From positions 1-31,182 of the IMG/VR virus record IMGVR_UViG_3300032046_000139: DNA of 31,182 bases; one strand, written 5' to 3'. The stretch is from a virus. Below the pieces are notes generated by a model. It had not been told where the DNA came from and did no database searches. It saw only the letters and a list, made by a program, of their open reading frames with translations. How positions within the stretch are numbered: position 1 is the first letter of the stretch; each line of letters opens with the position of its first letter. Below, one piece after another: positions 2,188-30,874 of the stretch. The position numbers and the translations under genes were made by a program.

Positions 2188-3858
2188 TTAGGGTTGTGGA
2201 CCTCCCATTTTTCCGTAACGATTCCAATTATACAAGCCACCAACGCTCCTGGTCATTGAGCTTGTTGTGCTACTGCCAAGGCGAATCTGGCTTTGACCCG
2301 TCGGCGCACTCACGCTTGTAGCTTCAATCACGACGTTTTTCAAAGCATCCTTAATCAGTTGCGCGCACATCCGGGCAGTCTGAAGATCCGCGGCGCCTTC
2401 AACGTTGACCAATGGAGCATTGATCTCCACAATCACTGAAGACCCTCCGCCTATTGGCGCCGAGGGCCAGCTAGGCATTGAACCTCGAACGGCCTGTTCT
2501 ATTTCAAGGGCTTTTTCTGCGTTGGCCCATTCCCAGCTGCGGGCTTCACGATTCCATGTATACAATGGTTCCGCGGCTGCTTCCCCTGTTTTCGCAGTGT
2601 CCGCAAGTTTAGCCATCAACTCGTCAAGAATATTCACGGATTCTTCAAGGCTGATGTTCATGTCAGTTGCAAATTTCTTGGCCGCGGTCATGACGCTGAC
2701 CATCATTCCAGACTTCCAAGCTTTCGCGTAGGCCTCAACGTATTTGTCGCCTAGTTCCCGGGCCTTATCAAGGTTCCAATGAGACTGCAACTGATCGAAG
2801 AGAGCGGCTACTGGATCGATTGCTTCAGTGATTTGCGTGCTTATTTCTTCAACGACTGAGGGAATTTGTTCGAGAGAGGCGAGAAAATTATCTATTGTCT
2901 TGCGGGCGTCGTCGATGCTGATGCCAAATGTCTCGGCAAAATCGAGGAGGACCCATGTTGCTTTGTCAATGTTGCCGCCAGTGAGTGCCTTGTCAAATTC
3001 GAGGGCGATCTTTTGGAGGGCCTCTGAACCTGCCGCCTGCAAAAGCTTGAAGTCATTTCTCAATTGTCCTGCAGTGTCTGACCATAGTTTATTGTCTTCT
3101 TTGACTAATTCATAGAATTCCTTGTAAGCTGCAACCATCTTTCCTTCAGGTGACAAACTATAAGCAAGGTCATCAACCCCTTTTTGCAAAGTTTGGAATT
3201 GAATGTCCAATTCTCCAATGGCTTGTTTCAATTTATCAAATTCAGTGCGAGAAGCATATATTTGCTTGTACTCTTCTCTAAGAGCATCGGCCGCGGAATT
3301 GACTACCAAAGTAAGTGTAGTAATGGCACCAGCCACTATGCCTATTGGTCCCAACGCAGCACTTAGACCGATGCCCATTGCTTTTAACGCGGTCGTTAAG
3401 CTTGTAACGGCGGTTATAACTGTAGGCACAATGCTGACGGCGAACATGAGCATGGTTTGACCAACGTCTTCCTGTGCAAGTTGTTGTCTTTCATATGCAA
3501 CGGTTAGACTTTCTTGTGCAATCTTCAGTTTATCCAAGGCATCTGCAGCTTCAGCACTCTTGAAACCGTATTTTGCGACTGTTTCATTATAGTTTTTGGT
3601 TATCTGGTCCAAGCTTTCTGTTGAACGTTGCACCATCAAGTTTGCACGATCAAGTGAGACCTGAGACTTGTGTATTCTGTCGAAACTCATGTAGAGGCTG
3701 AAGGCCGCTGTGGTTACTCCGCTGAGACCAACAGCAAGATCCTTGAATGAAGTCTTCACTTCATCAGTGCTACGGCCAATAGTTCGAAGTTTCGCTGAGG
3801 CTTGGTCGATAGCTGTAACTAGGATATCTATCCTTGTTTGTCCACCTGCATACGCCAT
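2188..3858 (-). CDS. Tail tape measure protein
   Basis: 556 aa. Fixes tail length during assembly and is expelled during DNA ejection. Residues 1-60 are a helical N-terminus; 60-130 are predicted coiled coil; 136-187 form a long hydrophobic, Gly/Ala-rich stretch typical of tape measure proteins; 190-420 are again long amphipathic helices; the C-terminus is Ser/Gly-rich. GAGG lies seven bases before the ATG. It follows the overlapping chaperone pair, the diagnostic order in siphoviruses. At roughly 1.5 angstrom per residue the protein would specify a tail of about 80 nm, short for the group. The role is strongly supported, although the sequence itself is divergent. Confidence 0.9.
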   Translation of the reverse strand: MAYAGGQTRIDILVTAIDQASAKLRTIGRSTDEVKTSFKDLAVGLSGVTTAAFSLYMSFDRIHKSQVSLDRANLMVQRSTESLDQITKNYNETVAKYGFKSAEAADALDKLKIAQESLTVAYERQQLAQEDVGQTMLMFAVSIVPTVITAVTSLTTALKAMGIGLSAALGPIGIVAGAITTLTLVVNSAADALREEYKQIYASRTEFDKLKQAIGELDIQFQTLQKGVDDLAYSLSPEGKMVAAYKEFYELVKEDNKLWSDTAGQLRNDFKLLQAAGSEALQKIALEFDKALTGGNIDKATWVLLDFAETFGISIDDARKTIDNFLASLEQIPSVVEEISTQITEAIDPVAALFDQLQSHWNLDKARELGDKYVEAYAKAWKSGMMVSVMTAAKKFATDMNISLEESVNILDELMAKLADTAKTGEAAAEPLYTWNREARSWEWANAEKALEIEQAVRGSMPSWPSAPIGGGSSVIVEINAPLVNVEGAADLQTARMCAQLIKDALKNVVIEATSVSAPTGQSQIRLGSSTTSSMTRSVGGLYNWNRYGKMGGPQP

Positions 3859-7643: not shown

Positions 7644-8819
7644 TTACGCTCCCAAGTCTCTCTCGAGGTGACGGTAAGCAATTGTTCTCGTCACTGTCAC
7701 ATCGGTTGAGCATTGAATTGTTACTTTGCAGTAGCCATGAACTAGGTTGATTTCGACGCTTGGATATTCATTCTCTTGTCCGACCACGTATTCGGCATAG
7801 GCTGAGGGTTTGTCACTGTAGTTAGTACCGTCAATTTTGTTGTAAACGCGGATTTTGACTGTTCCGCCCTCCGCCGCCGTCTCCAAGACATCAAGATCAA
7901 AGAAGACTGATAACGCGTAGATGCCTGTCTTCGCAATTTCCACAACCTGCGTTTCCGCCTTATCATTGGCAGTTGTGATGTCATGCGTCAAGTTTCCCGC
8001 GTCAACCGCGTTCTCAACTTTTCCCTCAACATCCGTTGCTTCCTGACTGCTTAATCCGAGGGTGCTTTCCTTCGCTTTCAAATATGCATGAACATTCAAC
8101 GTTGTGCAACGAAGATTAAGCAATTCAGCATTGTTGAGGTTGTCAAGGTATCCTGCTCGTGCCGCGCTGAGTCGAGTCAACAATGTTGCGACATCAGAGG
8201 ACAATGCTACGGCGCCTGCACTCAAGTTATCAAGGTATCCTGCACGGAGGGCAGATAACCGTGTGAGTAAAGTATCTATGTCTGCGGGGATATTTGTCGC
8301 ACCTAATTCTCCGAGTCTCACATCGGTGCAGACAGAAGCTAAAGCGACTGCGCCGCCGCTGAGATTATCAAGATAACCCGCGCGAGCGGCAGATAAGCGA
8401 GAGAGGACCGTTGCCATATCGGCGTTGAGTGCAATGGCGCCTCCTGAAAGATTGTCTAGGTAGCCTGCTCTTGTCGCTGTCAATCGTGCAAGCAAAGCAT
8501 CAAGGTCTGTGTTGAGTGCAGAAAGTCCATAGGTGCCGTTTATGAGTAAGGCTTCATTGCCGACTCCGACTGGAAAAGCTAAGCCGCCATATTGTTCAGG
8601 CGACGCGCATGAAAACTTGATTGCCCAAACACCCGCAGTATCAGGCGTAAACTGGGCATAGTAGAGGCCGCCTGCAATTTCCGTGACTGTGGGCGTGCTG
8701 AATTGGGTGAAGGTTTCATCGTAGACGATGGCGGTGACGGTTTTGCCTGTTGCAGGCTTACCAGTCGACGGATCAATCAGGAAGAAAAGGGAAGAGATAA
8801 CTTCGTTTATGGCATACAT
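7644..8819 (-). CDS. Fibre protein with four RAGYLDNL repeats
   Basis: 391 aa. Residues 1-90 form an Ig/carbohydrate-binding-like beta domain (GKTVTAIVYDE, GGLYYAQFTPDTAGVWAIKF). Residues 100-230 carry RAGYLDNL four times, each within a heptad-like helix (LLTRLSAARAGYLDNLSGGA), at 117, 146, 192 and 221. The C-terminal 150 residues form another beta domain. RAGYLDNL segments are common in trimeric phage fibre shafts. It lies between the spike and the lectin-like protein, so it is likely a structural shaft of the receptor-binding apparatus. Confidence 0.85.
   Translation of the reverse strand: MYAINEVISSLFFLIDPSTGKPATGKTVTAIVYDETFTQFSTPTVTEIAGGLYYAQFTPDTAGVWAIKFSCASPEQYGGLAFPVGVGNEALLINGTYGLSALNTDLDALLARLTATRAGYLDNLSGGAIALNADMATVLSRLSAARAGYLDNLSGGAVALASVCTDVRLGELGATNIPADIDTLLTRLSALRAGYLDNLSAGAVALSSDVATLLTRLSAARAGYLDNLNNAELLNLRCTTLNVHAYLKAKESTLGLSSQEATDVEGKVENAVDAGNLTHDITTANDKAETQVVEIAKTGIYALSVFFDLDVLETAAEGGTVKIRVYNKIDGTNYSDKPSAYAEYVVGQENEYPSVEINLVHGYCKVTIQCSTDVTVTRTIAYRHLERDLGA
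8136..8471 (-). repeat. Intragenic RAGYLDNL-encoding repeats
   Basis: Four repeats within the fibre gene, spaced 29, 46 and 29 residues apart. The spacing suggests two duplicated pairs separated by an insertion of 17 residues. The DNA copies have diverged at synonymous positions, so the duplications are not recent. Confidence 0.85.
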
Positions 8820-8820
8820 C

Positions 8821-10911
8821 TTATACGCCCCATACGGTGACTGTGGGTGCGGTTGTCCATGTGCATGTGAACGTCCAACTTCTTGGAATTCGGAATGCTG
8901 TTAATGTTGCGGCTGCATCTATGATCTTAGTTCCTCCAGAAGGAAAGGCTATGGTCACGTTGACTCCTGTTCCTCCTGAGACGGTTATGTAATATTCAGT
9001 GTTGAAGGTGATGTAGGTTGTCGTGTTTGTTGGGGTTGCCGCTGTTCCTTGCGCTAGGAATATTCCGTAGTGGCTGCCAAACGAAGCGAATGGAAGTGCA
9101 ATAGCAATAGGAGGCGGATACGACGTGTCGTTGTAGAAAGTGCAGTCGAAGACTTCTGTGCGGATGCCCCATCGAAGCATAGCATTAGTAATAGTGAGTC
9201 CGCCACCAAATTCGACGTTTTTAATCTTGTTTTGGCGGCTTGCATAGTCCGTTCCAGCGTAGTTTGTGCCATCATACCACACATAGCTTGAACCAGCAGC
9301 CATGTAGATTTGCCCGCCATCCATCGTAACATGTCTCGTGCCACTTACCATGTAAACGGCGGTGTTCTTGATCCCCCACATTCCCGTATTGATGAATTGA
9401 ATGTCTTCGGAAAAGCTTGAGCCGTCACTCTGTATCCAAACACCATAATCCATGTATTCGATAATGCTATTGTAGAAACTCATCCTACCCCCCCAAGTGA
9501 TGTTAACCCCAGTTTGCCCTGTTCCAGAAAGCCCAGACTCACTATCTAAAATCTCCAAACGATGAAACTCAAGAGCATTTATGATGTCGTTCCCTGAGGC
9601 TGCACCGCCCTCTAATTTCAGACCTGTACCGCCATTATGAACACCAATAATTATGTCAGCGAGATATGACTCGCCGCTATTGAAATTCGTCGCGCTGTTG
9701 TATAGATAGATGCCTGTCCCATAAGTGTCCATTCGGACATGCTGTATGTTCAATAGCATTGTTTGACCTAGACTTATGCCAGCATACCCCGCCTTTATCT
9801 CTCTAATTATCACGTTGTCGATTGCACCACCCCATTTATTGCCAGTATGAGTTGGCCATACACCGTAGATGCCATTGCCGCTTTTCTGGTTCATGTCGAT
9901 CTGTAAATTGCTGATTTCCCAGTCGCTATAAATCGAGTCATCTGTCCCGTTGTTGATCCAGAAACAATCGGTATTTGCCGTAACATTAAACACGGTCATC
10001 ATGGAAGAACCCTGTATTTTGGTTTGCCTTCCTAGACCGATCCTAGTATCAATGTTATAATAGGCATCAAGAACGAGAATCGACCCTGCCTTTGCAGCCG
10101 CGTTTAATCCGCTTGAGCTTTCGCCACTTGACAAGTTACCCACCGCATTGTTGAGAACGGCACTTGCATTAGTGCTAGTCGTCAATGTTCCATCATACTT
10201 CTCTGCGTAATACGTGGAACCAGTCTTGTAGACAGTATATGTGAAAGGCAAAGTGTATGAGCTGGCGCTGCCTCCGCCGATACTGGGAAAAGTCACAACG
10301 GCGCTGCCATTCCAATATTTGTAAGTGTCCTCTACTGTGTTGTACCAAGTGTAGCCTTGTTCTGGTTGCCCCCACCCCGCAGTTGAGGGGTCTGCCGCTA
10401 GTTGCGTCCATAGAACAGTTCCGCGAGTATTGAACCATTGAAGTACGCCACTGTAGGATTGGCAAACTATTTGTGTGCTTGTCAAAGCCAAGCTTGAATT
10501 GTGAGTGCAATCTTTCAGATACAAGAGGCCTGATGTCATGTTGCCTAACGCGTATTGCTCGACCAGTGTCTTGTTTGTGCTGTAGAATTCGAGGCGCCCT
10601 GCACGGTCATCCGTCCCGTTGAAAAGACAGTAATAGGTGCTATGGGGGGCGATGATGTAGTTTGCTTCTTTCACCATTGCTGAAACTGTGCTGTTCACGG
10701 GAATGTTGATCTGTGCTTTGGTCTCATTGATCTCCTTAGCCATTTCGTCGATGTAAACTTGAAAATCAGCGTTGATCTTGACTTCTGCACCCTGCCGTGC
10801 AGCCCACCCCCCTGCCAATGTAAGACCAATAAGTAGGAAGAGAAGTATGGCTGCTTGCCACCATTTCAAACTGAAAATTGCTGTTTTCAAACTAGGTGTT
10901 TCTTTACTCAT
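8821..10911 (-). CDS. Membrane-anchored right-handed beta-helix spike
   Basis: 696 aa from the ATG at 10911. Residues 1-16 are polar, 18-38 are one hydrophobic helix (QAAILLFLLIGLTLAGGW), and the rest is predicted outside. From about residue 265 the protein has pectate-lyase-like beta-helix features: AKAGSILVLDAYYNI, then many short Asn/Gly-turn rungs (GIYLYNSATNFNSGES, IEYMDYGVWIQSDGS). Beta-helix tailspikes usually bind or cut surface glycans. It has many Asn-x-Ser/Thr sequons. The N-terminal anchor is not usual for a virion spike. It could be a host-envelope protein or a spike anchored in a virion membrane; which one cannot be read here. No catalytic site identified. Confidence 0.85.
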   Translation of the reverse strand: MSKETPSLKTAIFSLKWWQAAILLFLLIGLTLAGGWAARQGAEVKINADFQVYIDEMAKEINETKAQINIPVNSTVSAMVKEANYIIAPHSTYYCLFNGTDDRAGRLEFYSTNKTLVEQYALGNMTSGLLYLKDCTHNSSLALTSTQIVCQSYSGVLQWFNTRGTVLWTQLAADPSTAGWGQPEQGYTWYNTVEDTYKYWNGSAVVTFPSIGGGSASSYTLPFTYTVYKTGSTYYAEKYDGTLTTSTNASAVLNNAVGNLSSGESSSGLNAAAKAGSILVLDAYYNIDTRIGLGRQTKIQGSSMMTVFNVTANTDCFWINNGTDDSIYSDWEISNLQIDMNQKSGNGIYGVWPTHTGNKWGGAIDNVIIREIKAGYAGISLGQTMLLNIQHVRMDTYGTGIYLYNSATNFNSGESYLADIIIGVHNGGTGLKLEGGAASGNDIINALEFHRLEILDSESGLSGTGQTGVNITWGGRMSFYNSIIEYMDYGVWIQSDGSSFSEDIQFINTGMWGIKNTAVYMVSGTRHVTMDGGQIYMAAGSSYVWYDGTNYAGTDYASRQNKIKNVEFGGGLTITNAMLRWGIRTEVFDCTFYNDTSYPPPIAIALPFASFGSHYGIFLAQGTAATPTNTTTYITFNTEYYITVSGGTGVNVTIAFPSGGTKIIDAAATLTAFRIPRSWTFTCTWTTAPTVTVWGV

Positions 10912-10956
10912 TTTGCATGTTTTCTCTTTGCATCTACACCGATGCACCTGAACAAC

Positions 10957-11669: not shown

Positions 11670-12713
11670 CTAGCTTTGATATGTGATGGTGCAGATGCTG
11701 TTTGCGCTGCCATATTGGGCGCCGCCATCCAGGTGAGTGATCACGTAGCTTCCAAGTTCAGTCGGGACACGATACAATTCTACAAGCGGCTCATCTTGCA
11801 ATGCACCCCAGATTGCGCTTTGTCCCTTCAGTCCGACGTAAGCAAGTTTCTTATGAGCAGCTAAGAACGTTGTATCCCAGTATGGGTCTGCGTACCAGTC
11901 GAGGCCGAGGGCATGCGCTTTCTTGCCGAGTCCACTGACCATCAGGTCGTTGAGTGAACCGTAGTATTGGGTCATGGCGTCGGTTGTGCTGAATGCGGTC
12001 CACATGCTGCTTGGTGAAGTTATGATGAAGTCTGAAGTGAACCCGTCTGCAGCGTTCAGTTTGATTGCGTTTCGCACATCTGTGAAGGTCAATACTGAGG
12101 TTGCAGCAGCACTTACGGTGTTGCCTGCCCCTGCAGAGAGGACGACAGCGACCTTTTCAAAGATGCCTTGACGGACACATCCACCGTGGATCCTGCCGAT
12201 CTCTTCCACGAAGTTGATGGCTGAGGTGTTAGCAAGCAAGTCGCTGATCTGTGTGACTTTGCCGAATGGCGCCAGTGTAATAGTTCGCTTGGCAACTGTT
12301 GGGTCTGCAGCGCTTAATGCTGAACCTTCAGTCCAGCTGCCATAGGCAGGCGCCGTGAGCACTTGGGTGTCGATGGTTTTGCCAGCGCCTTTAGGAACCT
12401 TTATAGTCATGCATATTTCGCGGAGGTCTGCCCAGTTGTTGAGTTCCAAGAGTGCTCTTGCCTGAACCATTGTTGGTAGGGCTATGTTGCTTGTGCCACT
12501 GAGGAGTTCTTTCAGCGTCATTGCGGCCGTGTCGCTTTCATTGAATGTGCGAAGTTTCTCGCTGAGGGCTCGTTTCCTCTGTGCAGCATAGATTTCTCGG
12601 GCAGTCATATTGAAGTATGGAGCAAGGTCTTCTTTGCCCGCCAATTGTTCGAGTGCCTTTGTGATTCTGTCATCTATGGATTTAGTAGCTTCTGCGATTT
12701 TTGGATCATCCAT
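11670..12713 (-). CDS. Major capsid protein, HK97 fold
   Basis: 347 aa. Residues 1-75 are a charged, helical delta-like region; the rest has the HK97 layout: LPTMVQARALLELNNWADLREI, PAYGSWTEGSALSAADPTV (E-loop side), APFGKVTQISDLL, the spine helix FVEEIGRIHGGCVRQGIFEKVA, an A-domain with FTDVRNAIKLN and FIITSPSSMWTAFS, and a closing VPTELGSYVITHLDGGAQYG. GGAG lies nine bases before the ATG, after a 109-base intergenic leader. It follows the protease-scaffold gene in the standard packaging-head order. Very likely the shell protein. Confidence 0.93.
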   Translation of the reverse strand: MDDPKIAEATKSIDDRITKALEQLAGKEDLAPYFNMTAREIYAAQRKRALSEKLRTFNESDTAAMTLKELLSGTSNIALPTMVQARALLELNNWADLREICMTIKVPKGAGKTIDTQVLTAPAYGSWTEGSALSAADPTVAKRTITLAPFGKVTQISDLLANTSAINFVEEIGRIHGGCVRQGIFEKVAVVLSAGAGNTVSAAATSVLTFTDVRNAIKLNAADGFTSDFIITSPSSMWTAFSTTDAMTQYYGSLNDLMVSGLGKKAHALGLDWYADPYWDTTFLAAHKKLAYVGLKGQSAIWGALQDEPLVELYRVPTELGSYVITHLDGGAQYGSANSICTITYQS

Positions 12714-12822: not shown

Positions 12823-14118
12823 TTACTTGGACTTCTTGGTCTGTGCTTCAATGACTTCTAGGCTTACAAGTCGGAATGCATCTGCTTTGTCGAGGCCTTC
12901 ACTGCGGAGTTGGTGAAAACGAATCCAGAACCCTTCCTTCGTCAAAACACATTTACATGGTTCCTTGTTTGCTTCTGGTTTCGGAGGCTCCGGCTTCTTG
13001 AGTTCCGCAAGTGTTGCTTCGAAAGTTTTGAGTCTGGTTTCTATGTCAATGAGCTTTTCCTTAGTCTCGTAGTCCCCGACGCCTGCATCCTTAGCCGCTG
13101 CAACCAGAACCTTTTGAGCCGTGGCTCGGAGGTCCGCTGCGGTTATGCTGTCAGTTACTGGTTCTATCTGGTTCATTCTGGCGAGGGCGTTGCGCAAGTG
13201 TGGAAGGTCAACTGTTCCGTCTTTGTCTTTGAAGGGCAAGTGCCGGCAGCGTTTGTCCTGGGTTTTGTCGGGGTATGCAGGTTCGACTACGGCGAAACTG
13301 GAGTCTGGTAATTCGTTGATGTATGCGGCGGTCCATTCTGCCTCGAGGCCTGCAGGATCCGAGGCGGCCAGCGGGGTTTGAGCAGGAGTAATCGGAGGCG
13401 GTGTTGCTGGCGGTTGTGTGGGAGGCGACGCTGGAGTTTGTCCAGGTATTGGATTTTGACTGTTTGGTTCATTCAAGTTTGTCACGCTCGTGACTGTGAA
13501 GGATTCAACCAGTTTTTCAACCGGCATAATACGACTGAGAGGTACCCCGGGTAGGACGTCTTTCGTGAGTAATGCGAGGCCTGTGAAAACGAGGCCAAGA
13601 CACACGTTGCCTTCCGGCGTCTGTTCCGTACCTCGGAGACAATCTGCCTCGATACTGACTTGGAGGATGTCGCCTTTCTCAATCAGTTTCAGGGCTTTAC
13701 TTTCCTTCTCTATCCGGAGGAGGCATTCGACGCAGTTGTCCTCGTATTGAGCATCGTAAATGGTGACTTCAGGAAGCTTCTCATCTGTATGATTGAGGTC
13801 TACGGTTTTGCCGACCAATGACCTGGCTGCCTGCAGCAACTCATCTTTCGTGTAAACATTGTTGTTCATGCTGGAAAGGGGAAAGAGGGCTTCAACTTTG
13901 AAGTATTTGGCTTTTTCATCTTCTTTCAGAAATTTGAGGTATGATTTGGTCCAACTGAATTTTTCCTGAAGAGTCTCATACGGTTTGGTGTCGTCTAATC
14001 CTAGTTTGTTGAGCCAGGCGTAGTAAACTCGTTTTCCCTCTTCACATTCCTTTTTGTCTTTGCAGTAACGCCACATGAAGGCGTCAAATATTTTTTGGAA
14101 ATCCTTATGTCTCGGCAT
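12823..14118 (-). CDS. Prohead protease fused to scaffold-like region
   Basis: 431 aa. Residues 60-205 match the prohead serine protease fold: TVDLNHTDE with the probable catalytic His110, QVSIEADC with the probable nucleophile Ser155, then FTGLALLTKDVLPGVPLSRI. Residues 211-275 are a Pro/Thr/Gln-rich linker. Residues 280-345 carry a second small domain (SSFAVVEPAY, HLPFKDKDGTVDLPHLRNALARM, AQKVLVAAAKDAGV) seen fused to head proteases and minor head proteins in other phages. Residues 346-431 are coiled-coil and then Cys/His-containing. It should mature the capsid and help scaffold it, consistent with its place before the capsid gene. Confidence 0.88.
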   Translation of the reverse strand: MPRHKDFQKIFDAFMWRYCKDKKECEEGKRVYYAWLNKLGLDDTKPYETLQEKFSWTKSYLKFLKEDEKAKYFKVEALFPLSSMNNNVYTKDELLQAARSLVGKTVDLNHTDEKLPEVTIYDAQYEDNCVECLLRIEKESKALKLIEKGDILQVSIEADCLRGTEQTPEGNVCLGLVFTGLALLTKDVLPGVPLSRIMPVEKLVESFTVTSVTNLNEPNSQNPIPGQTPASPPTQPPATPPPITPAQTPLAASDPAGLEAEWTAAYINELPDSSFAVVEPAYPDKTQDKRCRHLPFKDKDGTVDLPHLRNALARMNQIEPVTDSITAADLRATAQKVLVAAAKDAGVGDYETKEKLIDIETRLKTFEATLAELKKPEPPKPEANKEPCKCVLTKEGFWIRFHQLRSEGLDKADAFRLVSLEVIEAQTKKSK

Positions 14119-14130
14119 TTCAATTCACCG

Positions 14131-16113
14131 TTAATATCCGATTTCTAGCAGGATCAATAAGCAGCGACAGTGAGGATGCGCATTTGGCAGGATTAATGTG
14201 TAATCTGTGTCGTCGCGGTTTGGGAATTGCATGTCAATCTGTTCTCGCGTGAATGTTTTGGTGTCGTGCTGCATGCAATGCTCGCAGGTTTTATCATCGA
14301 CAACCGCGACAAACATGTATGTTAACGTGAGTTCGATTCCAAGCAACTCGAGGACGAGATCCAGCCGCTGCTTCCCTGTGACTGGAAGTTGCGCGGTTAC
14401 TTGTTCAAGTTTCTTGCCTTGCAGGTTACCTTTTGCTTGGACGGATCTTACGGCTTTACCATAACCTTGCAGATTCAGGGCCTTGTGAACAGTGTGAAAA
14501 TTGATTGTGAGATCCTTGCGGACTGGTTTGATAGCTATTCCATGCGCTTCTAGGTTGAGGCGTTTGGGATGTATGCTTTTGCCAGTAATTTCTTTCTTGA
14601 GACTTTCAAGATAGACGGCACGTCCAGTTGCAAGATATTTCTGCAATAATCGGAAGGGAAGAACTACCCCCCACTTGTGCAGGGCAGGGGCAATTATCGT
14701 TTCAATGTCAGGTATCACTTGAGCGATGACAGCGGCATCAAAGTACAGCGATATTAACACGACAAGCTTTTCAATGATCACGTCAGCGAAAGCGTTGACG
14801 ATTGCGTTTTTTTCAACGGTAAAGGTTGTTTCTGTCTGTAGATCTGCTAGAGCGGTTGATATGGCGTCTTTGACAAGATTGTATGTTGCCTCAGAAGTCA
14901 CTGAGGCTAAGGCTTCGGTTTTGGCGTCTGCGAAGACATTGAAACTTGTCTCTTGGGAATGAAGGGCCCGAGCCTGCACAACTGCGTCTTTCAAGATTTC
15001 GATGAAAGCCTCGATAATTATGGTTGCAGATGCATTTACTAAAGCATCTTTATTGATGTTAAACGTGGTTTCGAGGTTAAGTTGGGCTAGGGCCTGAATG
15101 ATTGCTGTTTTCGTAATATTGAAGAGTGTTTCATATGTAGAGAGGGCTTGCACGGTTACTTGCGCGTTTTTTGTAATGTTGAATGTCAACTGTTCAGAGG
15201 GTATGGCGGTTGCTTTAGTTATTGCTTCTGCAGAGAAGCTAAGTTCGAAAGCCAAACTTGATAGGGCGCGACTAATGGCGTCCTTCGGAAGATTAAACGT
15301 TGTTTCACGTGCATGAACACTTTGCGATGAGACCGCCGCGTCTTTCGCAACGTTGAAAGTGCACTCTTTCGCGGGGGTTGCAGAAGATTGGCAAACTGCA
15401 TTGACATTTATCTCGTAGGTTGTTCCGCTTGGTGCCGCTTTGAAAGTTGCGATACACCCCGCCCAACCAAAAGTTGCTGCGCACGTAGCACCTGTGTTAG
15501 CTGTTCCTATTGCAGAAACAATCTTTTCAAAATAACCGCATGTCTCTTTCATTGCGGAACCGTAAACTGCTCCATCTAGCAAAGTAAAACCGTTTGTAGG
15601 GCTACTTTGCGGTGTACTTAATGCAGAACTGCTTTGAGTAGCTGCACCTATCCATAATTCGCTTGCTTGTGTTGTCGTTGCTGTAGTACCCGTATCAAGC
15701 GGTGTGCTAATACCACTGTTAGTGGCGGTTTTATCAAGAAAACTTGCGGTAAGAACTCCTGAATATTCACAAACGTCAGCAACCGCAGCGCGGTCATAAG
15801 TTGTAGCACTCATGGTTATAGTTATGGTTACGCTGGCTCCAGCACCTACGACCCCAAACCAAATTTCTGTATCTGTATAAGTTGTTACCGTGGTTTTTGT
15901 TTGGGATATTTGTTTTGTCCATGTTACTCCTGTTTCAGCTATGCTTGACACAGTCAAAATTGCGTTGAGTCGAGATAAACTTATCACGGCAACAAGCACG
16001 TTTCCACTTATCGGCGTAGAAGCCAGCGTCACAATAAAGGTAGCACTATGAGGACCATACCCGTCGCCATAAGTCACTCCTCTTGCGTTGCCCTGAACCC
16101 TAACGATCGCCAT
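14131..16113 (-). CDS. Fusion of beta-domain, 20-residue repeats and MuF-type head domain
   Basis: 660 aa. Residues 1-230 form a Thr/Ser-rich beta domain of the phage surface type (VLVAVISLSRLNAILTVSSI, ELWIGAATQSSSALSTPQ). Residues 241-440 are about ten tandem repeats, mostly exactly 20 residues long, of the type ETTFNITKDAIVQALAQL. The C-terminal 200 residues end in KTCEHCMQHDTKTFTREQI and LPNAHPHCRCLLIL, the signature of MuF/gp7-type minor head proteins (D-x-TC-x2-C ... HPxCRC). The gene sits between portal and protease, the normal MuF place. The DNA-ejection role of MuF is known; joining it to a repeat stalk and outer domain is unusual. Confidence 0.85.
   Translation of the reverse strand: MAIVRVQGNARGVTYGDGYGPHSATFIVTLASTPISGNVLVAVISLSRLNAILTVSSIAETGVTWTKQISQTKTTVTTYTDTEIWFGVVGAGASVTITITMSATTYDRAAVADVCEYSGVLTASFLDKTATNSGISTPLDTGTTATTTQASELWIGAATQSSSALSTPQSSPTNGFTLLDGAVYGSAMKETCGYFEKIVSAIGTANTGATCAATFGWAGCIATFKAAPSGTTYEINVNAVCQSSATPAKECTFNVAKDAAVSSQSVHARETTFNLPKDAISRALSSLAFELSFSAEAITKATAIPSEQLTFNITKNAQVTVQALSTYETLFNITKTAIIQALAQLNLETTFNINKDALVNASATIIIEAFIEILKDAVVQARALHSQETSFNVFADAKTEALASVTSEATYNLVKDAISTALADLQTETTFTVEKNAIVNAFADVIIEKLVVLISLYFDAAVIAQVIPDIETIIAPALHKWGVVLPFRLLQKYLATGRAVYLESLKKEITGKSIHPKRLNLEAHGIAIKPVRKDLTINFHTVHKALNLQGYGKAVRSVQAKGNLQGKKLEQVTAQLPVTGKQRLDLVLELLGIELTLTYMFVAVVDDKTCEHCMQHDTKTFTREQIDMQFPNRDDTDYTLILPNAHPHCRCLLILLEIGY
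14794..15393 (-). repeat. Tandem 60-bp coding repeats (20-residue units)
   Basis: The aromatic position of the repeat falls at residues 253, 273, 293, 311, 331, 351, 391, 411 and 431, with an isoleucine at 371. The period is thus 20 residues (60 bases), with one 18-residue unit. The consensus is roughly E-x-T-F-N-x-x-K-D-A-x3-A-x-A. Nucleotide identity between units is modest, so they are old and kept by selection at protein level. Confidence 0.9.
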
Positions 16114-16135: not shown

Positions 16136-16609
16136 TTAAGCCGCTTGGAACTTCGGAGTATAATATATTTTCACTGTATCGCCCGACACAACGTTCTTGA
16201 CAGCGTAGGCGTCACGGCAATAAAGCGTTCCGCCTGACGAATTGTTAAGGATCCCGCATTCTACGAGGGCATATGTATTTGTGATGTTGAACGTTGCATC
16301 CATGCTGCACTCGCCTGTAGGCCCGTCTTTCCCATACGTGCCTTTCACCCGCATCACTTCCGTTTGAAGTGTCGTATCAGCCGCAAGCGTCGCGTTTGTA
16401 CCAGTTCCAATAGCAATGCTGTTGAACACTGCAGGCCTGCCTCCGCTTTCGTCAAAGCCTTGTCCACAGAGCGCGTTCAATCCAGCATTCACGACTATGT
16501 CTTTCGCATCAATGAATTTCTCATCAATCGATACGAGTTTTCCTTTCCGCCAGACTTCAATCCGTCTTTCGACGCCGACTAATACCTTGCTTTTCACATT
16601 TTTTTCCAT
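16136..16609 (-). CDS. Phage fibre/collar-like protein
   Basis: 157 aa from the ATG at 16609, with GAGG eight bases upstream. The pattern IVVNAGLNALCGQ, FNSIAIGTGTNATLAADTTL, then ALVECGILNNSSGGTLYCRD and VSGDTVKIYYTPKF is common in small phage tail-fibre or collar proteins. It lies between the portal-linked small genes and the MuF fusion, so it may sit on the head or neck rather than the tail tip. The assignment is by recognisable pattern; the location in the virion is inferred. Confidence 0.8.
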   Translation of the reverse strand: MEKNVKSKVLVGVERRIEVWRKGKLVSIDEKFIDAKDIVVNAGLNALCGQGFDESGGRPAVFNSIAIGTGTNATLAADTTLQTEVMRVKGTYGKDGPTGECSMDATFNITNTYALVECGILNNSSGGTLYCRDAYAVKNVVSGDTVKIYYTPKFQAA

Positions 16610-16934: not shown

Positions 16935-16940
16935 TTTTGA

Positions 16941-17231
16941 TCAACCGTAGACTTCTTCAGCCTTCGCCTCGAAACCGCATTTAAGGCCCCGTTTCACTTC
17001 CAACTGTGGAATCCAAGTAAACTCAACTTCCCCGATCTCACCAGACTTAAGGCTCTTGGAAGCGGAAACCTTCACATTCGGATCTGAGACAACGATCTCA
17101 ATCTTCCGCAGTTCACCTTGACTATCATTCTTCAAAAAGACTTTTACAGACTGAGACGTGCCAACTTGAACCTCTCCAAAATCAAGCGATTCAGCACGCA
17201 TTTTACAGTCTTTGTCCTTGAAAAACTGCAT
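16941..17231 (-). CDS. Small Ig-like (ASH/MSP-type) protein
   Basis: 96 aa with a beta-sandwich pattern: SLDFGEVQVGTSQSVKVFLKN, then GELRKIEIVVSDPNVKV and GEVEFTWIPQLEV, closely resembling ASPM-SPD2-Hydin/MSP-type Ig domains in secreted and virion proteins. Its ATG overlaps the portal stop as TAATG. Ig-like extras often decorate capsids; here that is an inference from fold and location. Confidence 0.8.
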   Translation of the reverse strand: MQFFKDKDCKMRAESLDFGEVQVGTSQSVKVFLKNDSQGELRKIEIVVSDPNVKVSASKSLKSGEIGEVEFTWIPQLEVKRGLKCGFEAKAEEVYG

Positions 17232-18613
17232 TAAGAACCCTGCTTCAATATTTTTTGGAGAGCCTTTTTCTTGAGTTGCTCCATTTCCCCACTCATCGAC
17301 GGAACAAACCGACTATCCATAACCGTGCCCTTCCCCGCCTCATCAGGATAACCCAATGTTTTCCGAGCCCACGACGGACTGACAACGCCATGCTCAATTT
17401 CACCCTGCAACTTCGTGCTGAGGCTTGTTTTATCCTCTTCTTTCATAGGCCGCCAAACCATCTTAACAGGCTTTGCGGTCTGAACAAGACTGAAAAGGTT
17501 GGCTTCATGAAACCGTTTCAAAACGCGTTGGTAAGCCCTGACTTCCGCCTCGAGAATCCTCTCTTGATAGTCGGCTGTGGCCATTGTGGTTGTGCCTCCG
17601 AATCCGAGGGCGGGTTCTGGAACGCCAAGGCCTGCAACCAAGTTACGTGTGAAGTGAGCGAGAATAGGCTCAACCGTCTGACGGCCGCCAACACTTGCAC
17701 TTTGATAAACCTCTTGGATCTGTTCTATTGTTCCATCGTTGAATATGTCTTCACCTGGCTTCCGGTTAATCACGCCGTTCTTCACTCTATCATAAGTGTC
17801 CTTGTCAACTGGATTGTCTTTACCGCCTATCTGAATGTGAAGCATCGGATCCGCACGGCGTCGCGCTATCCAAGGCAGTTTTTCCTCCATGAAGAGCAAG
17901 GCTTTGATTGTTGGCAAAACGCAGCGGAGGCAGCTGACGCCGAAGAATGCCCAGGGTTCAGCGTTGAATTTGAGATGCAGGACTTCTTCAGGTTTTAAAC
18001 GGTCAACCTTGCCGAAGCTAGGTTCATAATGGTACTCTATGATTTGCTGGGTACTATCAAGTTTCAAGCCTATTTTCAGCGGGTTCAAAGGCTTGTATGC
18101 CTGGTCTTTCTGTTTTTGCCAGTACATGTTTCCAGTGATGAGAGCGAAAAGGGCTCCGTCACGAAACACCGTGTCTGCCTGCAAGTTAGTTAGCAAGTCT
18201 GTAATGGCTTGTTTGCTTGTGTCGTCCTCTGATTCGAGGTCGTAGCCCATTTGCCAAATCATGAATTGTTTGATGTCAACCGCTCGAGCCACGTAGGGAA
18301 TGTAGTTGTATGCGTCAAGGTAATCCTGGAAGTCATTGAAGTCATCAGGGTATTTGACGCCGCTAACGGTGCCTACACTGACTTTCACGGCTGTAGCAGG
18401 ATTCACGGAGACTTCAATGAGTTTAGCGGTTTCAAGCCTGCCTCGAATACGAGTCTCGCTTGATTGGGGTTGGTCCGAGCTTGAAATGAGGTAGGGTCCT
18501 GGAGTTGGACCTTGCACTGTGACGAGTCCTTGCAGCTTAATCGGAGGGGGAACTTTAGGTTTTGGATGAAACTTATTAAACGGCCAAGGCCAGGATTCTT
18601 CTTTCTTGCTCAT
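17231..18613 (-). CDS. Portal protein
   Basis: 460 aa. It shows the phage portal layout: an N-terminal Pro-rich tail, helices with DYLDAYNYIPYVARAVDI, a clip/stem region with KPEEVLHLKFNAEPWAFFGVSCL (the conserved loop after the wing domain), PWIARRRADPMLHIQIG, then FTRNLVAGLGVPEPALGFGGTTTMATADYQERIL and a C-terminal helix. The dodecameric portal forms the vertex through which terminase packages DNA. The start overlaps the terL stop as ATGA. Strong call from sequence pattern and position. Confidence 0.92.
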   Translation of the reverse strand: MSKKEESWPWPFNKFHPKPKVPPPIKLQGLVTVQGPTPGPYLISSSDQPQSSETRIRGRLETAKLIEVSVNPATAVKVSVGTVSGVKYPDDFNDFQDYLDAYNYIPYVARAVDIKQFMIWQMGYDLESEDDTSKQAITDLLTNLQADTVFRDGALFALITGNMYWQKQKDQAYKPLNPLKIGLKLDSTQQIIEYHYEPSFGKVDRLKPEEVLHLKFNAEPWAFFGVSCLRCVLPTIKALLFMEEKLPWIARRRADPMLHIQIGGKDNPVDKDTYDRVKNGVINRKPGEDIFNDGTIEQIQEVYQSASVGGRQTVEPILAHFTRNLVAGLGVPEPALGFGGTTTMATADYQERILEAEVRAYQRVLKRFHEANLFSLVQTAKPVKMVWRPMKEEDKTSLSTKLQGEIEHGVVSPSWARKTLGYPDEAGKGTVMDSRFVPSMSGEMEQLKKKALQKILKQGS

Positions 18614-19902
18614 TTGTCTCCGACAACTCCGAAACTCACGAGGCCCCTCGGTCTGCCTCGAGCAACAATCGCGAAGGCACCGCTTACGGCATCAACCTGG
18701 TCGTCATGTACGCCTCCTGGAAAAGCTTCAGCCTCGTCAAGAAAATCGTTTATCCACGGGCCCCTGACCAGTTTCACATTGCCGGCCTCGGCAGCTGAGC
18801 TCACTGGGTTTGCCCGGATCTCTTTGCTGCCCGTTGTCTTCTGCCCGTGAAAACTGAAGCCAACAAGAACATGCCGGGCGTAGTGGTCGATGTTTGCGAT
18901 GCCGGCACTGCCAGGTTCAAGTTCCATGTGAATGTCAATTTCATGGCCGTCGGTTTCCGCTGTCTGTTTTATGAGGTCTCCGACGTCTTTCGGGGTGCCT
19001 CGAGCGCGTTTTATGTCAATGATGTAGTAGACGCCGTCTTTCTGTGTGAGGAGAGCTCCTACCGTGTAGTCGGGATCCTTGCCCTTTGCCGCCTCGGTTG
19101 CAGCAAGATCCCAATACCGAGCCTTTACGGCGCCTCGAGGGTAATCGTCAACTATCTTGAACCATTCACGTCTGAACTTGCCTCCAGTGGTTCTTGCGGA
19201 CCAGTCGCCATTCAAGAGTTGTGCTCTTGTTACCGGGTCTAATTCGCTGAGGCTGGCACGATATGTTTTCTGGTCCAGGTAGGGATTGTCCTCGAGTTTT
19301 GCAGGAATGAAGACCCGGCCTTTTTCGCGGCCTTCAATGAGAAATCGTTGCTTGACCCATTCATGGCCGACGCCGCCGGGATTAGTGGCTGATCGCATTC
19401 GGAGGGGAACAGGACTCGTTTCGAGGCGGCGTAACCGGCTGAACATGAAGCGGTATTCTGCCTCGAGAAACTGGACAACCTCATCGAAACCTATAAACTG
19501 GAAGGCGGCGCTTTGATACCGGTATTTATCCGTCTCGGTTTCCATGTAGCCGAAGCATAATCGTGCAGTCGACGGAAAAGTCCAAGTGTGGTTTTCACCG
19601 TTCCACTTTGCAGGTGTGGGTCCGAGCCATTCTTGAGCGCGATCCATCAACGCCTCCGGGAGTGAAAGGTCTTTGTAGGTGCGTCGGAAAAGGATAGCTG
19701 TGTATCCGGGTATGTCGACGAATTGCAGAGCAGCCATTAAGAGGGCGTCTGATTTGCCGCCTCCGGCAGCTCCTCCGTAGAGGACTTCGCGTTCTGTTGT
19801 TACGAGGAATTCAGCTTGTTTGAGTGTTGGCTGATGCGGGATCCACCTGTTGCTGAGAACTGTCTTTGCTAGGAACTGTTTTTTCCAGGAAGAGAGTGTC
19901 AT
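18610..19902 (-). CDS. terL: Terminase large subunit
   Basis: 430 aa from the first ATG at 19902, overlapping terS by 92 bases; an in-frame TTG at 19941 would add 13 residues. ATPase: Walker A GGAAGGGKS at 43-51, Walker B FIGFDE at 136-141, coupling motif SATNPGGVG at 171-179. RNase H-like nuclease: YWDLAATE with Asp265, LEPGSAG at 328-334, and HDDQVDA around Asp400/401. Together they pump and cut viral DNA through the portal. Complete and intact by these motifs. Confidence 0.97.
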   Translation of the reverse strand: MTLSSWKKQFLAKTVLSNRWIPHQPTLKQAEFLVTTEREVLYGGAAGGGKSDALLMAALQFVDIPGYTAILFRRTYKDLSLPEALMDRAQEWLGPTPAKWNGENHTWTFPSTARLCFGYMETETDKYRYQSAAFQFIGFDEVVQFLEAEYRFMFSRLRRLETSPVPLRMRSATNPGGVGHEWVKQRFLIEGREKGRVFIPAKLEDNPYLDQKTYRASLSELDPVTRAQLLNGDWSARTTGGKFRREWFKIVDDYPRGAVKARYWDLAATEAAKGKDPDYTVGALLTQKDGVYYIIDIKRARGTPKDVGDLIKQTAETDGHEIDIHMELEPGSAGIANIDHYARHVLVGFSFHGQKTTGSKEIRANPVSSAAEAGNVKLVRGPWINDFLDEAEAFPGGVHDDQVDAVSGAFAIVARGRPRGLVSFGVVGDK

Positions 19903-20293
19903 ATTTTGTGAGGAGGTCTGCAATGTCTTTTCCCTTGTCAACAGCGATATCCAGTTTGCCCTCTGTTTTACTCTCTACTTTCCTCGGCATCATTTTCTCA
20001 AGTAACTTGTCGCGGTAATGGAGGCGTGTTCCAGTCTTTGCAGCCACGATATCAGCGAGTTGCTCTCGGACCAAGGCGTCTATGAAGGCTTGTGTAGACT
20101 CGTCTTTGAGGTTGCGGCGTATGGTTGACTCGTTGCATTTCAGTTCGGTTGCAATCTGTTCAAGAGTGTAGCCTTTAACGCGGAGTTCAAGGATTCTGCT
20201 GATTCGTCCTGCTTTTTTGACTAGGGCTCTTTTTCGTTTCGGCTTTGGCAACAGGGGTAGCATGAGAGGCGGATTCTGTGCATTATCGTGCAT
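19811..20293 (-). CDS. terS: Terminase small subunit
   Basis: 160 aa. Residues 26-65 contain a helix-turn-helix (RILELRVKGYTLEQIATELK, then NESTIRRNL) for binding packaging sites, followed by a long charged helix and a Ser/Gln-rich tail. The ATG at 20293 follows the upstream stop by seven bases without a clear ribosome-binding site. The overlap with terL and the DNA-binding motif support the call. Confidence 0.88.
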   Translation of the reverse strand: MHDNAQNPPLMLPLLPKPKRKRALVKKAGRISRILELRVKGYTLEQIATELKCNESTIRRNLKDESTQAFIDALVREQLADIVAAKTGTRLHYRDKLLEKMMPRKVESKTEGKLDIAVDKGKDIADLLTKYDTLFLEKTVPSKDSSQQQVDPASANTQTS

Positions 20294-28941: not shown

Positions 28942-29691
28942 ATGAACAAACAAATGGTACGTACGATCATTCTGGCGCTGGTTTTACTGTGCACATTGTC
29001 AACCAGAGTTTCGGCCCTAGACATAGATTTCCTCACAACAAGTGAAGTTATAGATACGCTCGGATATCTCCATGTTTTCGGAGAAGTTCAGAATAATGGA
29101 AGTCAAACCCTAAAATATGTGGAAATCGTGGGCACCTTCTACAATGCTGGTCATGTCGTTATCGAGACCGAATATACTTTTACTCTACTCGATCAGCTTG
29201 AACCAACACAAAAGAGCCCCTTCGACCTCTTCATAATGAACACAAACACTTCAGCTGACGTGACGTCGTATAAACTGACCGTAACAGGCAGTGAGGCGAA
29301 CCCCAAACCGCGAGGCCTACAAATCTTATCCCATAGTAGCTCGATCGATCAGCTTGATTACCTGGAGATTGTTGGTGAGATCCAAAACCTGCAGAATAAT
29401 TCAGCTTCTTATGTCGAAGTCATCGGAACCTTCTATGACCAAAATGGCACCGTCATCGGTTGTGACTACACCTTCACGGATCCAACCGACCTGGCAGGCG
29501 GCCAAACAGGACCTTTCAAAATCGTATTCATGTACGAGGCGCTCTCTAGTCTCGTTTCATCCTATACACTGACGGCTCAATCAAACGAATACTCGATGAT
29601 CCCAGAATTCCCGCTAGGGCCCGTTTTCCTGCTGCTGGCCACAACCCTTTTCATTACCATTCTCACACGACGAATACGAGTCAGACCTTGA
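28942..29691 (+). CDS. Secreted double-FxLYD surface protein with PEF-type anchor
   Basis: 249 aa. Residues 1-25 are a signal peptide (TIILALVLLCTLSTRVSA). Two FxLYD domains follow, about 26-120 and 125-215, each with a GYLHVFGEVQNNG or DYLEIVGEIQNLQ core and a matching YVE strand. The C-terminus (IPEFPLGPVFLLLATTLFIT, then Arg residues) is a PEF-type motif, membrane helix and basic stop, as in archaeal surface proteins processed or anchored at the membrane. No virion role is evident; it should appear on the host cell, so lysogenic conversion or superinfection exclusion is a reasonable inference. Confidence 0.85.
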   Translation: MNKQMVRTIILALVLLCTLSTRVSALDIDFLTTSEVIDTLGYLHVFGEVQNNGSQTLKYVEIVGTFYNAGHVVIETEYTFTLLDQLEPTQKSPFDLFIMNTNTSADVTSYKLTVTGSEANPKPRGLQILSHSSSIDQLDYLEIVGEIQNLQNNSASYVEVIGTFYDQNGTVIGCDYTFTDPTDLAGGQTGPFKIVFMYEALSSLVSSYTLTAQSNEYSMIPEFPLGPVFLLLATTLFITILTRRIRVRP

Positions 29692-30874
29692 TTTTTCCTT
29701 CTCTATAATCTGCAATAAGCTCTCTCATCGCTTCAATCTCATCATCGTTCAATCCTTCATGCTCTTGTCCCGGTGGTTTTCCAGTGTAAATGTTGATGTA
29801 AGGCTCCAATTTCGCGTATTCCCGTTCAACCGCGTCCGCATGAGTAAACGGCGCCTGATCATACGTGCCCCCCGGAATATCCAGTTGATCAAGCTCTTCC
29901 TTGTCAACAGAATGACCCATCATAAACCGCACGTAATCCTTGCTTATGCCTCGGTCCGGGGGACTGGCTTCTGACTCGAAAATCTTGCGGAACATGTGAA
30001 AAATCACGGTGTAAGGCCCCTTGTAAACGTCGTGCCTTTCCAAACGTTCTCTGAAGGGACTTCTCCAGGCTTCCGGCGTCAACTTCGACCCGTCACGTTT
30101 AATGAACAGGTAGGGGCTCTTTTTGCCGTTGAGCCATTTCCTCCGGAGGGGCAGCCACTCTTGAATCTCCGTTATCGCGTCAAGCGAACAGAAAGTGTAG
30201 TATCGGAAATCATTGCCCTTGCGCCCATCAAAATTAAACCGGATCCGTTTCCTGCCCTGACTGATCATTCGCGCTATGTATTCGTACTGATCATTAATGT
30301 CGTTGAGGACCTGCATTATGCTCTGCCCCGTCTGCAACCCTAACATGCAGATTGCGCGGTCACGCTTATTCAATGCACCAATGACTTTCTTAGCTAAACC
30401 AACAGTGTAGGGATCCGGCCGATATTTCCGGTGCTTCTTCACGCCATAAAACCCGCGCGCGCTAGTCAACTCAACTTCATGAGCCTTACAGAACAAATTT
30501 ACGCTCTTGAGCATGGCGCCATAAAGCAGAGCGTGAGATTTGCCTTTTAAATCAGGGTTATCCCGGGTGAACTCCAAAACAAGATTCCGCCCCCAACCCC
30601 GATCCTCAACAACCCTGCTCAACCGCTTCTCACACAACACCTGCAAAAACTCACTCGGCTTCATCACCAAACCCTTACGGATCTGCAACCACTTGAAAAA
30701 CATGCATAAATACCGACTGAAACCGCGTTTGGTCGATTCAGCATACTTGCCCAAAAACTGCTTCACACACAAATTAGCAGCAACAAACGCGTCAACCTCA
30801 ACCCCCGAAACACCATAATCATAACGCCGCCGCCAATCCACAACCCTACACCCAAAAACAGAGGAACACCCCAC
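29681..30874 (-). CDS. int: Tyrosine recombinase/integrase
   Basis: 397 aa from the outermost start (GTG 30874). A SAM-like N-terminal domain reaches about residue 160 and the catalytic domain follows. Present: HMFRK (the H-x-x-R box), MGHS after it, and EREYAKLEPY with the likely nucleophile Tyr. The usual first Arg (TGLR-type motif) is not seen; the place reads LGLQTGQSIMQVL. A TATA-like box abuts the GTG, so the true start may be a GTG at 30841. It converges with the rightward operon by 11 bases. Should insert the genome into and excise it from host DNA; the missing Arg leaves activity unsure. Confidence 0.85.
   Translation of the reverse strand: MGCSSVFGCRVVDWRRRYDYGVSGVEVDAFVAANLCVKQFLGKYAESTKRGFSRYLCMFFKWLQIRKGLVMKPSEFLQVLCEKRLSRVVEDRGWGRNLVLEFTRDNPDLKGKSHALLYGAMLKSVNLFCKAHEVELTSARGFYGVKKHRKYRPDPYTVGLAKKVIGALNKRDRAICMLGLQTGQSIMQVLNDINDQYEYIARMISQGRKRIRFNFDGRKGNDFRYYTFCSLDAITEIQEWLPLRRKWLNGKKSPYLFIKRDGSKLTPEAWRSPFRERLERHDVYKGPYTVIFHMFRKIFESEASPPDRGISKDYVRFMMGHSVDKEELDQLDIPGGTYDQAPFTHADAVEREYAKLEPYINIYTGKPPGQEHEGLNDDEIEAMRELIADYREGKIKV
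29692..29705 (+). terminator. T-rich terminator of the rightward operon
   Basis: Directly after the TGA at 29689-29691 comes ATTTTTCCTTCTCT, a T-rich stretch on the plus strand that fits an archaeal intrinsic terminator. It lies within the end of the convergent integrase gene. Confidence 0.45.

What the first reader, a model, noticed from the sequence alone, without database searches (positions are those of the whole stretch)
14131..16113. MuF-type head domain fused to a 20-residue repeat stalk and a surface domain
The C-terminus carries the CxxC ... HPHCRC motif of MuF minor head proteins, while residues 241-440 are about ten 20-residue repeats and residues 1-230 a beta domain of the phage-surface kind. 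MuF fusions with toxins or enzymes are known; a repeat stalk with a beta cap is not one I recognise. It could be an ejected effector, a virion fibre on the portal vertex, or a packaged length ruler.
Basis: partly seen in the sequence, partly recalled or inferred. Interest (0 to 1): 0.75.

Follow-up and report, generated by a model that had tools for sequence, protein, structure and literature searches.

The report
Swappable viral surface fibre on MuF
A tailed virus, probably one that infects an archaeon, carries a surface-fibre module (a tip plus a repeat stalk) whose relatives lie at three different places of other virus genomes, and here it has been joined to a small head protein that probably pins it to the neck of the virus particle.

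Summary
The 660-aa ORF at 14131-16113(-) holds an N-terminal beta domain (1-228), about ten 20-aa repeats (250-447) and a C-terminal CxxC...HPHCRC MuF-type motif (610-651). It is a real fusion under purifying selection; the nearest relative found, L002, has the same order. Of 27 portal relatives (window included), 15 have a free 87-132-aa MuF gene beside the portal, two a free 201-219-aa 'linker-MuF' gene, two the fusion, and in eight no MuF was found. Stalks without MuF lie in the tail-protein region of other viruses (L047, L051, L052, L127) or between capsid and connector genes (L096, L130, L007); L047 and L096 also carry a homologous cap. One of two companion-gene types stands upstream, directly or within a few genes. 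Between window and L002 a 2.2-kb block (companion, cap, stalk) is exchanged, and one edge lies inside the ORF at the stalk/linker joint. So this is a portable surface-fibre module on a MuF C-terminus, most likely shown outward at the portal vertex. Presence in the virion, orientation and receptor are inferred, not shown. Ejected cargo stays possible; a length ruler gets no support. New variant of a known kind.

The parts
14131..16113 (-). 660-aa fusion gene: cap - repeat stalk - linker - MuF zinc-motif domain
   Evidence: same architecture in L002 (569 aa)
15430..16113 (-). cap, aa 1-228, beta-sandwich
   Evidence: AF2; 46 BFVD matches of the whole model at E<=1e-3, three of them named minor tail protein, aligned ranges not given; homologues in L002, L047, L096, L081, L083, L082, L068, L112
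14701..15429 (-). stalk, aa 229-471; core 20-aa repeats aa 250-447 (14773-15366)
   Evidence: same repeat family in L127 and L130 (E 1.1e-38 and 2.9e-48)
14359..14700 (-). linker, aa 472-585; among the portal relatives seen only in window, L002, L005 and L032
14134..14358 (-). MuF zinc-motif domain, aa 586-660; CxxC at 14286-14275, HPHCRC at 14178-14161
16136..16609 (-). small companion gene (longest ORF starts at 16660; likely start the ATG at 16609, GAGGAA upstream); matches phrog_5417 and the 'tail fiber protein' family phrog_4176
   Evidence: (E 6.8e-12 and 1.7e-9); homologues in L127 and L130
16941..17231 (-). ASH/Ig-like 96-aa gene between portal and cassette (Pfam ASH E 1.8e-5, 25.3 bits, cut-off 27)
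17231..18613 (-). portal protein (used to find relatives)
   Evidence: phrog_9232 E 3e-25; Phage_portal below cut-off
12823..14118 (-). 431-aa neighbour downstream of MuF; relatives of it stand in the same place (read by eye)
   Evidence: no family assignment (best E 0.059)
11670..12713 (-). probable major capsid protein
   Evidence: Phage_capsid_4 E 8.9e-4, 20.1 bits, below the cut-off of 27

Best explanation
The gene encodes a virion surface fibre. A distal N-terminal beta cap, probably an adhesin for host surface glycans or S-layer, sits on a 20-residue-repeat stalk. A C-terminal linker plus MuF-type zinc domain docks the fibre to the portal vertex or neck. Cap, stalk and the small companion gene upstream form a portable cassette: related cassettes sit in the tail-protein region or between capsid and connector genes of other viruses, with other C-terminal ends there. 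In this lineage the cassette sits beside the portal and its stalk is joined in frame to a linker-MuF protein that is a separate gene in relatives. Shown by sequence: the domains, the fusion, the exchange of companion+cap+stalk as a block between window and L002, free-standing MuF relatives, stalk (and cap) relatives without MuF. Inferred: that the protein is in the virion, that it faces outward, that MuF is the anchor, that the cap binds the host.
For: Free mini-MuF (15) or linker-MuF (2) genes in 17 of 27 portal relatives, L032 and the window counted in the 27. Stalks without MuF among tail genes in L047, L051, L052, L127; tail assignment rests on PHROG hits (L047 minor tail protein 3.2e-23, L052 minor tail protein 1.6e-6) and on L051 and L127 proteins homologous to these (45-74% identity). 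Stalks after the capsid gene and before connector genes in L096 and L130 (major head protein 1.2e-8 and 5.5e-14, connector 3.1e-15 and 3.9e-15) and L007. Exchange block between window and L002 in 200-bp bins: 0.81-0.96 from 18,500 to 16,901, 0.21-0.62 from 16,900 to 14,701, then 0.88, 0.88, 0.78. Companion type goes with repeat type and not with slot: window-type companion with window-type repeats in 3 of 3 (window, L127, L130), the other type with GHG/DSG repeats in 6 of 6 (L002, L047, L051, L052, L053, L096). Three of the named viral-model matches of the cap are minor tail proteins. dN/dS about 0.20 (cap; dS 1.5, near saturation) and 0.12 (linker-MuF) against L002. No second MuF in the window.
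Against: SPP1 gp7, the studied MuF protein, is targeted to the procapsid interior (PMC6316719, passages). No virion data exist for any of these viruses. The MuF match is below Pfam's cut-off and covers half the profile, so the docking partner is uncertain. The stalk fold is unresolved: block pLDDT 30-61, and the helices drawn there are not trustworthy. No solved structure matches at E<=1e-3, so no ligand is indicated. The companion rule is loose: L007 pairs the second companion type with a third repeat type, L024 has it with no stalk identified, and the two companion types may be distant kin (best E 0.001). The cassette label is not significantly clustered on the portal tree (87 of 500 shuffles as low). 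A separate MuF start inside the ORF is not excluded: six in-frame start codons lie at aa 440-600, none with a ribosome-site motif, but the gene's own start shows none either.
Confidence: 0.55

Rival explanations
1. Internal or ejected cargo: the MuF end targets the protein through the portal into the procapsid, and cap+stalk are delivered into the host with the DNA.
For: SPP1 gp7 goes to the procapsid interior through the portal, and MuF fusions with toxins are known in temperate phages (PMC6316719 and PMC5576092, passages). The window has an integrase-like ORF at 29681-30874 (PHROG integrase E 0.0011), so the virus may be temperate.
Against: The extension is N-terminal, not C-terminal. No toxin or enzyme domain was found; no search for an immunity gene was made. 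Related cap and stalks lie among tail genes elsewhere.
Confidence: 0.2
2. Polyprotein: the fusion is translated as one chain but cut, so that linker-MuF works alone in the head and cap+stalk assemble separately.
For: Linker-MuF is a separate gene in L005 and L032.
Against: None direct; cleavage was not tested and no cleavage site was looked for. The exchange edge at the stalk/linker joint keeps the frame in both window and L002, which a cut product would not need in one chain.
Confidence: 0.12
3. Length ruler or assembly spacer packaged in the particle.
For: A regular repeat array.
Against: A separate tape-measure-like protein is present (2188-3858, phrog_1686 E 7.9e-8). The array is replaced in L002 by a repeat not detectably related, and the window repeat model finds none in L005 or L032. 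ORFs matching the window's tape measure are 352, 456, 1340 and 419 aa in L002, L005, L032 and L009 against 556 in the window, with no tie to stalk presence.
Confidence: 0.03

Closest known systems
MuF minor head proteins (PF04233; SPP1 gp7, Mu gpF)
   Same: CxxC...HxxCxC motif; gene close to the portal gene
   Different: Only the C-terminal half of the Pfam profile matches, below cut-off; a large extension at the N-terminus made of a fibre module
MuF polymorphic toxins (PMC5576092, passages)
   Same: MuF domain used as carrier for another module
   Different: There the variable part is C-terminal and in part toxic; here it is N-terminal with no toxin domain found
T4 Hoc capsid fibre (PMC10385173, abstract and passages)
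   Same: C-terminal capsid-binding end with a string of variable N-terminal domains
   Different: No sequence relation claimed or tested; repeats are 18-20-aa units, not Ig domains; the proposed site is the portal vertex
HFTV1 capsid turrets (PMC12494034, PMC9973310, abstracts and passages)
   Same: Tailed archaeal virus whose head touches the cell and carries proposed glycan-binding domains
   Different: Turrets sit on capsid hexamers; homology and MuF linkage not tested
Mycobacteriophage minor tail proteins with DSGxGxD-type repeats (Patience gp38 and others)
   Same: Repeats related to those of L047 (32-35% identity, E 7e-4 to 4e-3 in the 20 rows listed of 55 records; 15 of the 20 annotated minor tail protein); Patience gp38 follows tape measure and three minor tail genes
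   Different: This is the repeat type of L002/L047, not of the window; bacterial hosts; MuF not sought there

Membership tests
Phage_Mu_F (PF04233) | Score at or above the curated Pfam cut-off | tested here: not met
   25.2 vs 29.6 bits; also below for L002, L005, L003 and psiM100 ORF11
Phage_Mu_F (PF04233) | Full-length domain | tested here: not met
   profile positions 66-112 of 112 only
   invariant in 15 of 15 aligned rows
Phage_Mu_F (PF04233) | Gene in the portal-to-capsid interval | tested here: met
   portal by phrog_9232, capsid gene only probable
Phage_Mu_F (PF04233) | Binds the portal / is a virion component | not testable with these tools
   needs biochemistry
MuF polymorphic toxin | C-terminal extension carrying a toxin | tested here: not met
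   HPHCRC ends 9 residues before the C-terminus; no toxin domain in Pfam, PHROGs or NCBIfam
Tail-fibre / minor-tail-type surface protein | Homologues of cap or stalk among tail genes of other viruses | tested here: met
   L047 (cap), L127 (window-type repeats):
Tail-fibre / minor-tail-type surface protein | Present on the virion surface | not testable with these tools
   no virion data
Known fold for the cap | Match to a solved structure | tested here: inconclusive
   no PDB hit at E<=1e-3; best VIA Z 5.8, rmsd 7.3, 188 aligned

The most novel reading that the evidence does not exclude
A MuF-type domain serves as an outward-facing anchor at the portal vertex for exchangeable host-binding fibres, and one kind of fibre cassette (companion + stalk + cap) moves between neck, capsid and tail slots of archaeal-type siphoviruses by changing its C-terminal dock, so that first host contact can be made from the head side.
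Probability: 0.4. Interest if true: 0.75.

Novelty: new variant of a known kind. Interest (0 to 1): 0.55.

Why it matters
MuF proteins are widespread and poorly understood; the family paper describes short forms and C-terminal extensions (PMC5576092, passages). An N-terminal surface fibre on a MuF end would mean that the domain can carry something outward. The cassette also gives a sequence handle on head-side adsorption, which has been reported for an archaeal tailed virus (HFTV1). Three slots, several stalk types and two companion types make clear, testable predictions.

Tried and rejected
Single-sequence AlphaFold2 of the whole protein gave mean pLDDT 36 and was not used. Genome scan with the portal alignment: 64 stretches, no relative; with the terminase alignment: 116 stretches, two relatives, one on a contig filed under a Guaymas Bacteroidetes MAG and one in Cytobacillus. 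So the host is not identified; the closest named terminases are psiM100/psiM2 of methanogens, 51-52%. DNA-pattern scans were mostly chance: one search gave 5 loci, 1 real (L047); one search gave 64 loci, 7 with a cap match (L068, L081, L082, L083, L084 = L002's record, L096, L112); one search gave 5 loci, 2 real (L127, L130). Plasmid collection: no match to cap or stalk. Phage collection with the window protein: only E 0.3 to a minor head protein of one Methanomassiliicoccales virus, two records; with L002's protein: no match. PDB by sequence: one chain at E 0.91 for the cap, none for MuF. Kinship of the two repeat types was tested with hhalign and not found. The end of L053's 808-aa protein resembles the linker only suggestively (hhalign probability 15-17%), and the linker HMM did not reach it. 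L053's N-terminus looks cap-like by eye, but the cap model did not match it. Hydrophobic periodicity did not settle the stalk fold (window beta z 2.3, alpha z 1.2; L002 alpha z 3.9; the cap, a beta control, gave beta z -0.4, so the test is poor). Literature listings showed no paper on a MuF domain fused to an N-terminal fibre; the library is open-access only.

Full report
1. The thing itself. The ORF at 14131-16113 on the minus strand encodes 660 aa. The repeat signal is strong: lag-20 score 1.05 against a best of 0.14 over lags 5-59 in 1000 shuffles. A repeat HMM, built from the same repeats, covers aa 250-447. The C-terminus matches Phage_Mu_F at E 2.8e-5, below the curated cut-off and only over the second half of the profile. 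The putative zinc ligands are invariant in 15 of 15 aligned rows. With an 18-row alignment AlphaFold2 gives a beta cap (block pLDDT 75-97 to aa 130, 47-84 to aa 230), a modest MuF domain (62-82), and no usable model for stalk (30-61) or linker (27-45).

2. Where it lies. The window is a 31.2-kb virus record. Its terminase is 51-52% identical to that of psiM100/psiM2, viruses of methanogens. The head module reads terminase, portal, ASH/Ig-like 96-aa gene, companion gene, the fusion, a 431-aa gene, probable capsid gene. psiM100 carries a small protein with a C-terminal CDTC...HPFCRC motif (ORF11, 201 aa) in the matching place. Pfam scores it far below cut-off (13 bits) and the profile link is weak (E 1.4e-4, probability 53%).

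3. Relatives by portal. A scan with the portal gave 25 records; a MuF scan added L032; with the window that makes 27. Fusion: 2 (window, L002). Separate linker-MuF gene: 2 (L005 219 aa, L032 201 aa). Mini-MuF gene of 87-132 aa: 15, among them three pairs with identical or nearly identical portals. None found: 8 (L013, L014, L016, L022-L026); L026's contig ends soon after its partial portal, so it is no test. The ASH-like gene and the linker occur in the same four records of the 27. A portal tree of 25 of the 27 (L025 and L026, partial portals, left out; states assigned by me) needs three changes of the cassette state, at least two forced by well-supported branches; the sister pair of window+L002, L003+L004, has mini-MuF. 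Shuffled labels do as well in 87 of 500, so the state is not significantly clustered.

4. The block that moves. Window and L002 have 93% identical portals. In 200-bp bins identity is 0.81-0.96 from 18,500 to 16,901, 0.21-0.62 from 16,900 to 14,701, and 0.88, 0.88, 0.78 after that; the bin above the portal start is also low (0.66), where the terminases differ. BLASTN breaks at 16,936 and 14,705, that is at the end of the ASH gene and at the first codons of the linker. The exchanged 2.2 kb is companion plus cap plus stalk. The caps are homologous (58-64% aa). The stalks are not detectably related: 20-aa ETTFNIxKDAxVxAxA units against 19-aa FxDxGHGxDxFxIPFKAxG units. Linker-MuF is 88-90% identical. 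A second low patch lies in the next gene, 13,500-13,101.

5. Stalks elsewhere. L047 has a homologous cap plus sixteen GHG units and no MuF motif, behind a 1138-aa protein in a module with a minor tail protein (3.2e-23). L051 and L052 have the same stalk type and C-terminal ending with other N-termini. L127 has window-type repeats in a matching place: its upstream fragment is 64-74% identical to the L047/L051/L052 tail proteins, its 95-aa gene 95% to L051's, and its first 40 aa 70% to those of L051's GHG stalk, so the stalk is exchanged there too. L096 (homologous cap) and L130 (window-type repeats, other N-terminus) have the stalk gene after a major-head gene and before connector genes. L053, with a portal of the same PHROG as the window's (phrog_9232) although the window-family profile did not match it, has portal, ASH-like gene (E 1.2e-15), companion and a GHG-repeat protein, again beside the portal. 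L007, in the window's own family, has a free mini-MuF beside the portal and, after its probable capsid gene, a companion and a protein with an unrelated N-terminus and a third, 18-aa repeat. The MuF profile matched none of the seven records L127, L130, L047, L051, L052, L053, L096; all are classed linear and several are short fragments.

6. Companion and slot. Window-type companions stand upstream of window-type repeats in 3 of 3; phrog_23653-type companions stand upstream of GHG/DSG repeats in 6 of 6 and of a third type in L007; L024 has that companion with no stalk identified. The distance ranges from directly adjacent to about 4.5 kb (L130). The two companion types may be distant kin (E 0.001). 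The ASH-like gene was found in the five genomes with surface-type genes beside the portal (window, L002, L005, L032, L053), with one further weak hit in L015 (E 0.0046). It was not found near the other cassettes, but only L130 and L007 have their portal region at hand, so only these two are a test. I read the companion as a stalk partner and the ASH protein as a local base; both are inference.

7. Why a surface fibre. Foldseek against viral models gives 46 matches at E<=1e-3 for the whole model, three named minor tail protein; most span 220-300 columns, as fits the cap. The GHG repeats match 55 mycobacteriophage records at E<=0.01; 15 of the 20 listed are annotated minor tail protein. In Patience the gene follows tape measure and minor tail genes. 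The tail modules of window, L005, L009 and L032 have a 328-345-aa protein after the tape-measure ORF and no large fibre gene in what follows, but the records of window and L005 end soon after; L002 has an extra 550-aa beta-helix protein there. HFTV1 shows that an archaeal tailed virus can touch its host head first (PMC9973310, PMC12494034; abstracts and passages). T4 Hoc shows the plan of C-terminal dock and N-terminal string (PMC10385173; abstract and passages).

8. What speaks for the inside. SPP1 gp7 binds the portal, goes to the procapsid interior and is dispensable for assembly (PMC6316719, passages). Toxins fused to MuF proteins are proposed to be delivered into the host (same passages). 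Nothing here measures topology. I therefore hold external display at 0.55 and cargo at 0.2.

9. Verdict. The fusion is real, and a fibre on a MuF dock is the best fit. It is a new variant built of known kinds of parts rather than a new kind.

Noticed in passing
window 8821-10947(-), 7644-8819(-); also L005, L006, L009, L020: Second variable slot after the capsid gene: proteins with an N-terminal hydrophobic stretch and bodies that look, by eye, beta-helical, deacetylase-like (L009) or phosphoesterase-like (L020).
   Followed up: partly
window 18610-19941(-); L002, L003, L005: The terminase is swapped: window and L004 share one type (86%), while L002, L003 and L005 carry a different ORF of 395-412 aa there (terminase-like by eye).
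   Followed up: partly
L024:9332-10003: A 223-aa protein that by eye resembles a Cas4/RecB-type nuclease stands directly after the portal, where MuF would be.
   Followed up: no
L047:10918-12405, L051, L123, L125, L127: A protein of about 481-495 aa, ATPase-like by eye, recurs near the end of the tail module of quite different viruses.
   Followed up: no
window 28942-29691(+): ORF with a signal-like N-terminus, two similar halves and a C-terminal membrane-like stretch; possible cell-surface protein of a lysogen.
   Followed up: no
L005:10604-11221: Cys-rich 206-aa gene beside the portal; no family match except Pfam at E 4.9.
   Followed up: no
L003:9334, L006:6300 and 13 others: All 15 mini-MuF ORFs, as called mechanically, overlap the 3' end of the portal gene by 50-128 bases in another frame.
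   Followed up: no
L029: psiM-type terminase (55%) on a short contig filed under a Bacteroidetes MAG from Guaymas; may be a misbinned virus.
   Followed up: no
L059:351-749: A weak match to the window-type companion (E 2e-8) in a contig fetched by the cap pattern scan; context not examined.
   Followed up: no
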